A DNA stretch of 64,000 nucleotides from Aeromicrobium sp. Sec7.5 (GTDB taxonomy: Bacteria; Actinomycetota; Actinomycetes; Propionibacteriales; Nocardioidaceae): assembly GCF_036867135.1 (NCBI RefSeq), contig NZ_JBAJIJ010000001.1, positions 2,108,001 through 2,172,000 on the forward strand, read 5' to 3'. Positions 7,982 through 11,840 of this stretch are shown here, one piece after another. Each line of letters begins with the position of its first letter. Position 1 is the first letter of the stretch. The translations under genes and the position numbers were made by a program. Below the pieces are notes generated by a model. The model saw only the letters and a program-made list of their open reading frames with translations. It was not told the origin of the DNA and searched no databases.

Positions 7982-8960
7982 GAGCCACCTCCGAGCAGGG
8001 AGTCGAGGTCAAGCCCGGCGCGCTCGAAGGCGTCGCGGCGGGCGGGCCGCCCCACGGCCCGAACGAGGTCGCCGGAGCGTCGTTCGAAGACCGGTTCGCT
8101 CTCGACGCTGCCGGACTCGACCCGGCCCGTGACGGCGACGACCTCCTGCACGGCGCGACGGCCGGAGGAGTCCATCGCGGTGTGGACCACGAGATCGACC
8201 GTGCTGGCGACGGTCGGCACCACGAACCCCGCACCGATGTTCTCACCGGCGAGCAGCGGGAGGGTGCTGAGCTTCATCAGCGCCTGGCGCGCGGAGTTCG
8301 CATGGATCGATGCCAGTCCCGGCAGCCCGGAGTTCAGCGCCAGGAGGAGGTCGAGGCACTCCGCCGCCCGCACCTCGCCGATGATGAGGCGACTCGGGCG
8401 CATGCGCAGCGACTCCTTCACCAGCGCGCGGAGGTCGATCTCGCCGTTGCCCTCGAGCCCGGGTGGACGACACTGGAGCTGGACCCAGTCGGGGTGGGTG
8501 ATCTGCAGCTCGTAGACCTCCTCGGCCGAGACGACACGTTCGTGTCCCGGGATCGCCCCAGCAAGGCAGTTGAGCAGCGTGGTCTTGCCGGCCTGGGTGG
8601 CGCCGGAGACGACGATGTTGAGGCCAGCCACCACGCTGCCGCGCAGGAACCGGGCCGTCGCGGTGTCGAGGGTGCCGAGGTCGACGAGTGCCTCGAGGTC
8701 GTGGGCCCGGGCGACGAACTTGCGAATGTTGACCGCGGTGAAGCCATTCGAGATCCCGTCGAGCACGACGTGGAGGCGATGTCCGCCGGGGAGGTTGGCA
8801 TCGACGAAGGGCTGGCTCACGTCGAGGCGCCGGCCCGTGGTCGACAGCATCCGCTCGACCAGCTCGCGCACCCCGTCGGCCGTGAGGATGATGCTCGTCA
8901 GCTCGTGCCGACCGCCGCGGGCCACGAACACCCGGTCCGGCGCGTTGATCCAGATCTCCT
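7969..8960 (-). pseudogene. tadA: tadA/cpaF, 3' fragment cut off by IS110 insertion
   Basis: This part encodes the C-terminal 330 residues of the Flp pilus ATPase. It begins EIWINAPDRVFVARGG, which is the middle of the conserved CpaF N-domain motif, and carries Walker A GATQAGKTT and a Walker B region (RPSRLIIGEVR). Directly upstream in frame is a TAG belonging to the inserted element. The rest of the gene lies at 11597-11840. Joining the two parts at the shared CT gives 412 codons with no frame loss, reading DDPSVEEIWINAPDR. The ATPase is therefore inactive unless the element leaves. Confidence 0.92.
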
Positions 8961-8969
8961 AGGGCGTTG

Positions 8970-9440
8970 CTACCGGCTCCGTTCACGCCACGTCGGAGGT
9001 CGTCCACCCTCGCGCCAGATCACGAGTCGGAGATCAGCGAGAAGCGCAGTAGTGGCCGCAGCGTGCGCTGCAACAGCATCGCGCGCGATGTGCTTCTTGT
9101 GAAGGAGAGCATCGGTGATCGTCACGAGCGTCCGGTTGGCGCGTGACATCGCTTCGTCGATGCGTTGGGCTTCCTCGAGCGTGAGCCACTTCTGCCCGGG
9201 GAAGTCTGGAGCAGGTTCGGCCACGTAGGGCTCGTCCGCGTTAAGCCGACCCTCGCGGCGTCGCGCCCGCATTCGACCCGTCCAACGTTTGCGCATGGCT
9301 CTGTGGAAGATGCATCGCGGTGAACGACCTTCGGCCGGGCGACTGGTCGCGTCGGGGAACAGCGAGCAATCAACACACTCGCGGTAGTCCTGCTCATCGT
9401 TACTCACGCTGTTTACGCCTGCAGGCAGATCGCTCAGCAC
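8970..9440 (-). CDS. Passenger protein of the IS110 element, zinc-knuckle-like, unknown
   Basis: An open frame of up to 156 codons from GTG 9440, with GTG 9407 as an alternative start. It ends only 9 nt from the left border of the element. Visible features are a CxxC at ECVDC and a later CxxH at RCIFHR, likely one zinc site, followed by a very basic stretch (RKRWTGRMRARRREGR) and a helical C-terminal half. I do not recognise the family. Its lower GC content than the surroundings and its antisense orientation to the transposase suggest cargo. It could instead be a chance frame. Confidence 0.5.
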   Translation of the reverse strand: MLSDLPAGVNSVSNDEQDYRECVDCSLFPDATSRPAEGRSPRCIFHRAMRKRWTGRMRARRREGRLNADEPYVAEPAPDFPGQKWLTLEEAQRIDEAMSRANRTLVTITDALLHKKHIARDAVAAHAAATTALLADLRLVIWREGGRPPTWRERSR

Positions 9441-9589
9441 TCGCTGTAATCACGGCACGATCCTATGTATCCCTACCGTCAACCGTCTGCCGTGTGCACT
9501 GCATTAACGCTGATTAACGCAGTTTTGGTCCCTGCGGCGTGTCGACTGGACTCGTCCGGCGGTCGGACGGGAACGTCCGGTCATGTCGA

Positions 9590-9930
9590 GCCGCCACCAC
9601 AAACACGTCTACGGACTGCGCGGGCTTCGAGCCCTTCTGAGAGACGGACGGTTTGTGGTGGTCGCTGGGTATGGCGAACGACCCCGTGAGATGCCGCACC
9701 TTGAGTGCTCTGCCCTAGACCGATGCGCCAACCCAACAGGCTCGGAACCCACAGGAAGGAGAGGTCCTTGACCTCACCGGCCAGCACTGCGTTAGCAGTC
9801 CCGAGCCGCCGTCACGAAACCGCTTCAGATCTCCCGCACCGTGAGTGCTTCGTTGAGAGCGCGGGTCGTGTCGGTCGCTGGAGGCTGCTGAAACGGCCAT
9901 GTGAGATGTCGTGCCCTGAGCACTGATTGA
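9590..9930 (+). ncRNA. Candidate bridge RNA of the IS110 element
   Basis: This gene-free stretch upstream of the transposase holds guide-like segments. Target loop: 9826-9834 (CAGATCTCC) equals the left tadA flank, and 9870-9877 (GTCGGTCG) is the reverse complement of the right flank 11597-11604. They flank a hairpin region. Donor loop: 9686-9693 (GTGAGATG) equals the right end of the element, and 9712-9718 (GCCCTAG) is the reverse complement of 8959-8965 at the left end. A third module at 9901-9925 repeats the right-end sequence over 10 nt. IS110 recombinases use such RNAs. The transcript limits are not known. Confidence 0.75.
9594..9661 (+). other. Large RNA-type stem-loop in IS110 left region
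   Basis: Positions 9594-9604 (CCACCACAAAC) pair perfectly with 9651-9661. Inside lie a second helix, CGTCT 9606-9610 with AGACG 9642-9646, and a GGGCT/AGCCC hairpin at 9622-9634. A separate hairpin with stem CGGACG/CGTCCG lies just upstream near 9564-9579. Nested helices of this kind suggest a folded transcript, perhaps the 5' domain of the element's guide RNA. Confidence 0.6.
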
Positions 9931-10011
9931 CGTAGGTCGCCGCCAGTGGCCTCCACCCTTCCACCGGCGACTCCACACCCGCTGAACCACCCACAGAACG
10001 GAGATACACCC

Positions 10012-11337
10012 ATGCCCGCATACGTCGGAATCGACTGGAGTGAGTCCTACCAAGACTGGGCTGCTGTCGACCACGAAGGCACCAAGATCGAGGGAGGACG
10101 GTTCCTCGAGACACCGGACGGCTTCGATGACTTCGAGGCCCGCATCAGGGCTCTCGCTGACCCCGAGACCGGCACCCTGCCCACGATCGCGATCGAGACC
10201 GAGAAGGGCCTGACGGTCGCCAACCTGCGTCGTCGGGGCTACGCCGTCTACGCGATCAACCCGCTCAAGGTCTCGAACTACCGCACGCGCAAGGCAACGA
10301 GCCGCGGCAAGAGCGACAAGGGCGACGCGATGATGATCGCCAACATCGTCCGGACAGACCCCGACGACCACCGTGCGCTGCCGAACATCACGCCGAGCGG
10401 TCACGCGATGACCGTGCTGTCCCGCGCCCATCAGGACGAGATCTGGCGTGTCACGTCGATCGCGGCCGAGATGCGCAGCGTGCTGCGTACCTACTACCCG
10501 ACCGCCCTCGAGGTCTATCCCACCAAGACCCTCGTCAGCGACGAAGCGCGCACCGTCCTCCGGGCCCTGCCCACTCCGACGGCTGCGGCCGCGAAGCGCG
10601 CCGCCGGGTGGAAAACTCTGCTCCGCGACTCAGGTCGGGTGAAGTACATCGACCGAGACGCCGCCCGCCGCATCGAGTCATTCCGGGCGCCGACCCTGCG
10701 GGTCGACCCCGTCGAGGAGGCCGCGCTCGGCGCCCGACTGCAGGCCCTCATCACCACGCTCGACGGCGCCGTCACCGCGCAGCGCACCATCGAGGAGCAG
10801 ATGATGAACGCCGTCCGCCAGCACCACTACTACCCGCTGCTGCAGCCGATCGTCGGCATCGGGGACACCATCGCCGCCCGACTCCTCGGCGAGATCGGCG
10901 ACGACCCCTACCGGTTCGACAACAAGAACTCGATCCGTTCCTACGCGGGGACGGCGCCCATCACTCGAGCGTCCGGGAAGTCCATGGTCGTCAACCGGCG
11001 CCGCGTGAAGAACAACAGGCTCAACAACGCGATGTACATGTGGGCCTTCAGCGCCGCCCGCTTCTCTCCCGGCGCAAAGATGCACTACGGCGTTCGCCGG
11101 GAGCAGGGCGAGCGCCACGCGGCCGCTCTGCGCAACCTCGGGAACCGACTCATCGGCTGCCTCTGGCACTGCATGACCACCGGCGAGGTCTGGGACGAGC
11201 ACCGCGTCTGGGGCCACCGCTACACCCTGCCGCCCGCCATGCCCCTCACCGTCGACCTCGACAGCGAGGAGATGCGTCTCGAGACCACTCTCGAGGGCTT
11301 CGACGCGGCCATGGAGGCCGCCGCCGAGACCGCGTGA
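10012..11337 (+). CDS. IS110-family transposase (DEDD/serine recombinase)
   Basis: A 441-residue recombinase. The N-terminal RuvC-like DEDD domain shows VGIDWS (Asp about 7), AIETEKG (Glu) and KSDKGDAMMIA (Asp pair). The C-terminal Transposase_20 domain shows IVGIGDTIAARLLGEIGD and SYAGTAPITRASGKS, which holds the catalytic serine. All key residues look intact, so the element may be active. The ATG at 10012 follows GGAG and lies close to the guide-RNA region, as in the IS110 subgroup where the RNA precedes the gene. Confidence 0.93.
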   Translation: MPAYVGIDWSESYQDWAAVDHEGTKIEGGRFLETPDGFDDFEARIRALADPETGTLPTIAIETEKGLTVANLRRRGYAVYAINPLKVSNYRTRKATSRGKSDKGDAMMIANIVRTDPDDHRALPNITPSGHAMTVLSRAHQDEIWRVTSIAAEMRSVLRTYYPTALEVYPTKTLVSDEARTVLRALPTPTAAAAKRAAGWKTLLRDSGRVKYIDRDAARRIESFRAPTLRVDPVEEAALGARLQALITTLDGAVTAQRTIEEQMMNAVRQHHYYPLLQPIVGIGDTIAARLLGEIGDDPYRFDNKNSIRSYAGTAPITRASGKSMVVNRRRVKNNRLNNAMYMWAFSAARFSPGAKMHYGVRREQGERHAAALRNLGNRLIGCLWHCMTTGEVWDEHRVWGHRYTLPPAMPLTVDLDSEEMRLETTLEGFDAAMEAAAETA

Positions 11338-11352
11338 CCCGACACGACGCGA

Positions 11353-11386
11353 AGGACCCCAGCACGAGCAATCGTGCTGGGGTCCT
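11353..11386 (+). terminator. Transposase terminator, 14-bp perfect stem
   Basis: AGGACCCCAGCACG at 11353-11366 pairs exactly with 11373-11386 across a 6-nt loop. It lies 15 nt after the transposase stop. The remaining 210 nt to the element's right border contain no gene that I can support. Confidence 0.8.
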
Positions 11387-11567
11387 GTTCGCTGAACCAC
11401 CACTGCCGCAGCGTCCAATGAGTACTCGAGGCACAAGCCCTCGGTGTCTCCACAACACCTCGGGAACCTCCTCGCGGAGGCGGACACTTCAAGCGGTCAA
11501 GCGGAGTCGGAATGAGTCTAGTCCCAGCCCTTGCCGGTCACAATCAACACGGACGGTCAGCCTGCCG

Positions 11568-11840
11568 TCAGAGTGCGGTGGCTACGTGAGATGTCTCGAC
11601 CGACGGGTCATCGACCAACGGCTGCAGCACCCCGAGCCCGGCGACGTCGGCGACCAGTCGAGCGACCTCGACGTCGGTCTCGTCGAGCGTGCGCACCGCC
11701 CCGGTCAGGCTGGCCCGCTCGTGATCGGCCACGACGTCCTGGGCCGCCTGCCGCACCGCGGCCGGATCGGCACGCGGGTCGATCCGGCGCTCCCGCACCA
11801 GCTCACGGACGCGCGTCGTCAAGGTCGTTGCAGGATCCAC
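11568..11840 (-). pseudogene. tadA: tadA/cpaF, 5' fragment fused to element sequence
   Basis: The first 81 codons of the pilus ATPase start at GTG 11840, preceded by GAGGAAAGGGA. They encode the CpaF N-domain (DPATTLTTRVRELVRERR, then VADVAGLGVLQPLVDDPSVE). After position 11597 the frame continues into the IS110 element for nine codons (TSHVATAL) and stops at 11568. The catalytic domain is on the far side of the insertion, at 7969-8960. No ssd/cpaE-like gene lies upstream, so the start of the Tad operon seems to be here. Confidence 0.9.

What the first reader, a model, noticed from the sequence alone, without database searches (positions are those of the whole stretch)
9686..9925. Three related guide-hairpin modules with compensating stem changes
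Each module is a 9-10 nt guide followed by a 4-bp stem and a CNTGA loop: GCAC-CTTGA-GTGC (9696-9708), GCAC-CGTGA-GTGC (9836-9848) and GTGC-CCTGA-GCAC (9911-9923). The third has swapped base pairs, so the stem is conserved although the letters change. Module 1 looks donor-type and module 2 target-type. Module 3 repeats the right end over 10 nt (9901-9910 = 11586-11595) but has no clear right guide. An RNA with three guide loops is not something I know to be described.
Basis: seen in the sequence. Interest (0 to 1): 0.8.

Follow-up and report, generated by a model that had tools for sequence, protein, structure and literature searches.

The report
Jumping gene with multiple guide loops
A bacterial jumping gene that uses an RNA to choose where it lands carries two complete guide RNAs side by side, and related elements carry rows of target-reading loops that appear to send copies of the same element to different addresses.

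Summary
The three modules are real, at the stated coordinates. They are guide loops of bridge RNA in an IS110-family element (window 8959-11596) inserted in a cpaF/tadA-like gene at a CT core; 34 of 49 congeneric genomes match the uninterrupted site. A fourth module was missed (GGGC-TTCGA-GCCC, 9622-9634). The set is two complete bridge-RNA units, TBL1-DBL1 (9588-9728) and TBL2-DBL2 (9803-9945); a covariance model built without the window finds both (57.9 and 54.1 bits; next 12.0). Module 3 is DBL2, at the family's usual DBL place. The insertion target fits TBL2, not TBL1; the element's ends fit DBL1 best. Two full units side by side were seen nowhere else (scans of 394 and 391 genomes).

Relatives reveal something wider. 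In IS117-like elements, 62 of 80 loci carry 1-3 extra target-loop modules upstream of the usual unit. Insertion sites fit these upstream guides: among 52 target-distinct elements, 30 score at least 14 of 16, against 1.5% for other elements' targets and 0 of 52 for inverted targets. Two copies of one element (one base different) in one Streptomyces genome fit two different modules, 16 and 15.5 of 16. I found no description of such arrays in the searched library. Transcription and activity are untested.

The parts
8951..8958 (+). left target, CAGATCTC, in the disrupted cpaF/tadA-like gene
   Evidence: identical to TBL2 left guide 9826-9833
8959..11596 (+). whole IS110-family element including both copies of the CT core (8959-8960 and 11595-11596)
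   Evidence: joined flanks match an uninterrupted site in 34 of 49 congeneric genomes; own genome splits at query 1-61 and 60-117
8959..8965 (+). left end with core, CTAGGGC
   Evidence: reverse complement of DBL1 right guide GCCCTAG 9712-9718
8970..9440 (-). passenger-like ORF, 156 aa, unknown
   Evidence: nothing above cut-off in Pfam (best E 0.056) or NCBIfam
9588..9728 (+). bridge-RNA unit 1 (TBL1 + DBL1)
   Evidence: R3 57.9 bits, E 3.7e-10
9594..9661 (+). TBL1 with outer stem
9611..9619 (+). TBL1 left guide ACGGACTGC (assignment by analogy with TBL2; target not known)
   Evidence: no conserved site found in the genus
9622..9634 (+).
9635..9643 (+). TBL1 right guide TTCTGAGAG
9686..9695 (+). 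DBL1 left guide GTGAGATGC + core C
   Evidence: 8 of 8 with right end GTGAGATG, last base before core differs
9696..9708 (+).
9710..9718 (+). DBL1 right guide CTGCCCTAG
   Evidence: pairs with left end CTAGGGC, 7 of 8 plus one G-U over 8 positions
9803..9945 (+). bridge-RNA unit 2 (TBL2 + DBL2)
   Evidence: R3 54.1 bits, E 2.1e-9
9826..9834 (+). TBL2 left guide CAGATCTCC
   Evidence: 8 of 8 with left target plus core C
9836..9848 (+).
9849..9857 (+). TBL2 right guide TTCGTTGAG
   Evidence: 5 pairs plus 2 G-U of 8 with right target CTCGACCG; combined score 14, 0 of 59 other targets as good
9901..9910 (+). DBL2 left guide GTGAGATGTC
   Evidence: 10 of 10 with right end 11586-11595
9911..9923 (+).
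9927..9935 (+). DBL2 right guide TTGACGTAG, not matched to the present left end
   Evidence: 5 of 8 plus one G-U
10012..11337 (+). IS110-family transposase, 441 aa
   Evidence: PF01548, PF02371; NF033542 156.4 bits, cut-off 140
11586..11594 (+). right end GTGAGATGT
   Evidence: matches both DBL left guides over 8 bases
11597..11602 (+). right target after the core, CGACCG

Best explanation
The finding is part of an IS110-family (IS117-like) RNA-guided transposable element whose left end encodes two complete, diverged bridge-RNA units in tandem, TBL1-DBL1-TBL2-DBL2, followed by the transposase. Shown: the units, their structure, the precise borders, the fit of TBL2 to the present target and of DBL1 to both ends. 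Inferred: the element was placed in this gene by a complex that used the target loop of unit 2 and the donor loop of unit 1, each loop held by its own transposase dimer, which is possible because TBL and DBL in one IS621 complex come from different RNA molecules (PMC11208158). TBL1 would be a spare target loop and DBL2 a donor loop whose right guide no longer fits (or fits another end). The wider setting: in IS117-like relatives the left end is an array of one to three extra target loops ahead of the usual TBL-DBL unit, and which upstream loop fits the insertion site differs from copy to copy, so one element can aim at several addresses.
For: Borders: flanks join into an uninterrupted site. 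Units: R3, made without the window, finds both; TBL stems of the two units differ by compensating changes. Guides: TBL2 left 8 of 8, right 5 plus 2 G-U of 8; TBL1 only 3 plus 1 and 3 plus 1; DBL1 left 8 of 8, right 7 plus 1 G-U of 8; DBL2 right 5 plus 1. Arrays: 62 of 80 loci with upstream modules; stems 92.4% paired against 66.3% shuffled and at most 52.2% slid. Targets: 30 of 52 elements score at least 14 against 41 of 2652 swapped targets and 0 of 52 inverted. Identical element at two sites using two modules, L102 15.5 and L104 16 of 16. Further pairs of relatives in which an array holds guides for both insertion sites: L039/L133, L106/L034, L090/L084, L110/L091, L098/L088.
Against: No transcript or activity data. 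The two-unit layout rests on one element; none of the other genomes with hits shows it. Use of DBL1 rather than DBL2 is inferred from 2 more pairs on one side. TBL1 has no known target. In array elements the loop next to the DBL never fitted the target (0 of 46 at 13 or more), so its role there is unexplained. 10 of 62 elements score below 13, and one of three copies in G564 fits no module.
Confidence: 0.75

Rival explanations
1. Only unit 2 works: TBL2 and DBL2 form the ordinary bridge RNA and unit 1 is a decayed duplicate. The weak right guide of DBL2 is tolerated.
For: Unit 2 is at the usual place before the transposase; DBL2's left guide fits the right end 10 of 10; TBL2 fits the target.
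Against: DBL2's right guide pairs with the left end at only 5 of 8 plus one G-U, DBL1's at 7 of 8 plus one; in the 67 strictly delimited relatives the right guide fits 7 of 7, though by selection. Unit 1 scores slightly higher than unit 2 in R3 and has intact compensating stems, which is not what decay looks like.
Confidence: 0.2
2. Composite of two elements: the left end, passenger ORF and unit 1 come from one IS110 copy that lost its transposase, unit 2, transposase and right end from another; the fusion then moved as one unit.
For: The left end fits unit 1 and the right end fits unit 2 exactly; the units are only 62% identical.
Against: The units are each other's nearest branch in a FastTree of 79 sequences (support 0.879), which favours an old internal duplication; no remnant of a second left end (CTACGTC) was seen in the element, CTACGT occurs only once, in the right end. 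The tree rests on 139 columns.
Confidence: 0.35
3. The upstream loops of relatives are structural 5' hairpins (as in IS621) and their fit to targets is coincidence.
For: IS621 has a 5' stem-loop whose sequence is not conserved (PMC11208158, passages).
Against: Two-sided fit far above swapped and inverted targets; different insertion sites of one element fit different loops.
Confidence: 0.03

Closest known systems
IS621 bridge RNA (IS110 group; PMC11208160, PMC11208158)
   Same: RNA in the left end upstream of the transposase; internal loops with left and right guides around an apical hairpin; TBL before DBL; CT core; left guides same sense as the target or right end, right guides complementary.
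   Different: IS621 has one TBL and one DBL; here two TBL-DBL units, and in relatives one to three extra TBLs per DBL.
IS117 and IS117-like elements of Streptomyces and other Actinomycetota
   Same: Nearest transposases, 42-44% identical; same bridge-RNA family by covariance model.
   Different: They have one DBL with an array of target loops; the window has a second DBL and no array module of the usual kind, although TBL1 weakly matches the array model (29.6 bits).
TIGR-Tas arrays (PMC12045711)
   Same: Arrays of paired short guides; Nop-type protein domain (weak match NF052498, 52.4 bits, below its cut-off of 100).
   Different: No Tas effector; the loops serve a DEDD transposase and fit insertion sites. 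That paper states that IS110 bridge RNAs are a single two-stem unit.
seekRNA of IS1111/IS110 (PMC11187229)
   Same: RNA-guided target choice by the same transposase superfamily.
   Different: The passages seen describe one guide RNA per element; none described several target loops.

Membership tests
IS110-family transposable element | DEDD transposase with the IS110 N- and C-terminal domains | tested here: met
   PF01548 86.8 bits, PF02371 61.9 bits; NF033542 156.4 bits, cut-off 140
IS110-family transposable element | insertion at a dinucleotide core without a longer target duplication | tested here: met
   joined flanks with one CT match an uninterrupted site in 34 of 49 genomes
IS110 bridge RNA | structured RNA in the left end with TBL and DBL internal loops | tested here: met
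IS110 bridge RNA | TBL guides fit the insertion target | tested here: met
   TBL2; TBL1 does not fit
IS110 bridge RNA | DBL guides fit right end and left end | tested here: met
   DBL1 both sides; DBL2 left side only
IS110 bridge RNA | one TBL and one DBL per element | tested here: not met
   two of each in the window; extra TBLs in 62 of 80 related loci
IS110 bridge RNA | transcribed and bound by the transposase | not testable with these tools
   no expression or binding data
TIGR-Tas system | Tas protein above family cut-off | tested here: not met
   NF052498 52.4 bits, cut-off 100
IS1111 group | bridge/seek RNA in the right end | tested here: not met
   both units lie upstream of the transposase

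The most novel reading that the evidence does not exclude
IS117-like IS110 elements carry natural multiplexed bridge RNAs: an array of interchangeable target loops served by one donor loop, so that one element has several programmed addresses and spreads to whichever is present; the window element goes further, with two donor loops and division of labour between two bridge-RNA units. This would make bridge RNAs array-like, as TIGR guides are.
Probability: 0.7. Interest if true: 0.92.

Novelty: new variant of a known kind. Interest (0 to 1): 0.85.

Why it matters
Published bridge RNAs, in the papers seen, have one target loop and one donor loop. Elements with several target loops would explain how one element can have several site specificities without changing its RNA, would offer natural designs for multiplexed programmable recombination, and would bring IS110 closer to guide-array systems such as TIGR-Tas. 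The identical copies at two sites (L102, L104) make the idea directly testable.

Tried and rejected
Rfam found nothing in the window at gathering thresholds. A descriptor-only search for hairpin modules was not specific: shuffled left ends often reached 30-36 and once 41.5, against 48.0 for TBL1 and 34.0 for TBL2, so covariance models were used. Close relatives: none by a single-protein scan of genome contigs or viral contigs; best protein identity 44%. Target of TBL1: none in the own genome with up to 3 mismatches of an 18-base pattern, no conserved site in 49 congeneric genomes with up to 2 mismatches of a 16-base pattern, hits being about as frequent as with the reversed pattern. DBL2's right guide resembles CTACGT at 11582 in the right end; by my estimate such a match is expected by chance and I dropped it. 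Function of the loop next to the DBL in array elements: no consistent match inside the elements. Multi-copy elements L159-L178 (20 loci) each gave only one R1 match at E 0.1 or better, so they were not used for the array test. Border test: 67 of 120 elements passed; 53 were dropped because a guide did not find an end; 6 more were dropped for an odd left-guide match or missing flank letters, leaving 61 plus the window. The first target scan demanded a C after the left guide; it was relaxed to C or T with a narrower spacing window after seeing that L104 had been missed, so the exact scores carry that adjustment; the controls were run with the relaxed rule. R1 includes both window units among its ten training sequences; R3 was made to avoid this.

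Full report
1. What is there. The window holds one IS110-family element. The transposase (10012-11337, 441 aa) matches PF01548 and PF02371 and the NCBIfam IS110 model above its cut-off. The element interrupts a cpaF/tadA-like gene on the minus strand (gene name from my reading of the translation). Joining the flanks at a single CT gives a continuous sequence that matches uninterrupted sites in 34 of 49 genomes of the genus; in the own genome the same query splits into 1-61 and 60-117, so the borders are the CT at 8959-8960 and the CT at 11595-11596. The element is single-copy in its genome.

2. The modules. An internal comparison showed repeats at 9587/9802 and 9649/9862; aligning 9570-9765 with 9785-9975 gives two units of the same layout, and each folds into a long stem with an internal loop around an apical hairpin, the two stems differing by compensating changes. 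The order is TBL1-DBL1-TBL2-DBL2.

3. Independent test. R1, built from ten sequences including both window units, finds them at 98.1 and 95.7 bits. R3, built from 12 relatives only, finds them at 57.9 and 54.1 bits; nothing else in the window exceeds 12.0. In relatives the corresponding unit lies just upstream of the transposase, so unit 2, with module 3 as its DBL, holds the usual place, and unit 1 is the addition.

4. Which loops fit. Target left CAGATCTC: TBL2 8 of 8, TBL1 3 of 8. Target right CTCGACCG: TBL2 5 plus 2 G-U of 8, TBL1 3 plus 1. Right end GTGAGATG: DBL1 and DBL2 8 of 8; the next base (T) fits DBL2 only, but in many relatives that base differs between guide and end. Left end CTAGGGCG: DBL1 7 plus 1 G-U of 8, DBL2 5 plus 1. 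So target and ends are best explained by TBL2 together with DBL1. The published IS621 structure supports the possibility: TBL and DBL of one complex come from two RNA molecules, and separate TBL and DBL molecules supported recombination in vitro (PMC11208158, passages).

5. How rare is it. R1 hit 46 of 394 genomes of the class and 28 of 391 of the order; reading the match tables, only the window's genome shows two full-length units side by side on one strand. The two units are 62% identical and form the closest pair in a FastTree of 79 sequences (support 0.879).

6. What relatives showed. In the R1 search of 80 loci from genome contigs many elements gave weaker matches covering only the TBL half, upstream of the main unit. 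Model R2, from 27 such modules, found 116 matches at E 0.05 or better in the 80 loci: 100 upstream of the main unit on the same strand, 11 on the main TBL itself, 5 elsewhere; 62 of 80 loci have at least one upstream module (30 have one, 26 two, 6 three). Their stems covary: 92.4% of cells paired against 66.3% in shuffles, 255 double-changed cells against 64.2, and at most 52.2% paired when slid (the rows were fitted to the model, which favours its structure).

7. Do upstream modules guide insertion. Borders were predicted from each element's own DBL, without using the target: 67 of 120 elements passed. For 61 of these plus the window, 8 bases of left target and 8 of core plus right target were compared with every possible guide pair in the left end, G-U counting half; the two core bases are nearly free points in truth and control alike. 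52 of 62 score 13 or more. Reduced to 52 target-distinct elements: 30 score at least 14, against 41 of 2652 (1.5%) for other elements' targets and 0 of 52 for inverted targets (2 of 52 at 13 or more); in 46 array elements the best upstream guide reached 13 in 39 and the loop next to the DBL in 0. Best positions cluster near -100, -200 and -300 from the main unit, and 26 of 32 such guide pairs lie inside an R2 module. In four of five elements without array the loop next to the DBL fitted best, at 12.5 to 15.

8. Same element, two addresses. L102 and L104, from Streptomyces sp. NBC_01481, are alike from core to core except for one base; similarity stops at the CT on either side. L104's site ATTCGAGC|CTAACCAG fits the module at -307, 16 of 16; L102's site CGCTGGAC|CTGGCTGG fits the module at -102, 15.5 of 16. 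In one search, arrays of L039/L133, L106/L034, L090/L084, L110/L091 and L098/L088 hold a guide pair that fits the other member's site at 15 or better. In G565 all four copies used the same module, and in G564 two of three.

9. Against. Ten of 62 elements score below 13, among them L098, whose site fits no module; L043 has a left flank that fits one module and a right flank closer to another, perhaps a product of recombination between copies. The role of the loop next to the DBL in array elements is unknown. TBL1's target is unknown. Nothing shows transcription.

10. Literature. Searches of the held library found no paper on several target loops or several bridge RNAs in one IS110 element. Read: PMC11208160 sections 6 and 12 and passages; [quoted passage not shown] bioRxiv and most subscription journals are not held, so earlier description elsewhere cannot be excluded.

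11. Verdict. The window is a two-unit variant, possibly a one-off; the target-loop arrays of its relatives are the stronger and more general result.

Noticed in passing
window 8970-9440 (-): A 156-aa ORF inside the element's left end, with no family match in Pfam or NCBIfam above cut-off; perhaps a passenger gene.
   Followed up: partly
L102, L104 and other array elements, loop next to the DBL: The TBL-shaped loop adjacent to the DBL is conserved but fitted the insertion site in 0 of 46 array elements at score 13 or more, although it is the loop that fits in array-free elements.
   Followed up: partly
DBL left guides, for example L091, L096, L136: The last guide base before the core C often differs from the right end (guide G or A, end T), while the eight bases before it fit.
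   Followed up: no
L034 3232-3363 (-) and L035 3230-3373 (-): A second bridge-RNA match on the opposite strand directly behind the transposase; L035's right flank begins CTAATTG, like a left end, suggesting insertion next to or into another IS110 copy.
   Followed up: no
L043 (plasmid NZ_CP109267.1): Left flank fits one array module and right flank another, while L044 on the same plasmid fits one module on both sides; possible recombination between copies.
   Followed up: no
L186 (same place as L098, genome G564): One of three copies of an array element sits at a site that fits none of its modules.
   Followed up: partly
P0001, residues 241-367: Sub-threshold match to the TIGR-Tas endonuclease model NF052498 (E 6.8e-14, below cut-off), in line with the published Nop-domain link.
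   Followed up: no
window 11353-11386: Perfect 15-bp inverted repeat with a 4-nt gap just behind the transposase gene, a likely transcription terminator inside the right end.
   Followed up: no
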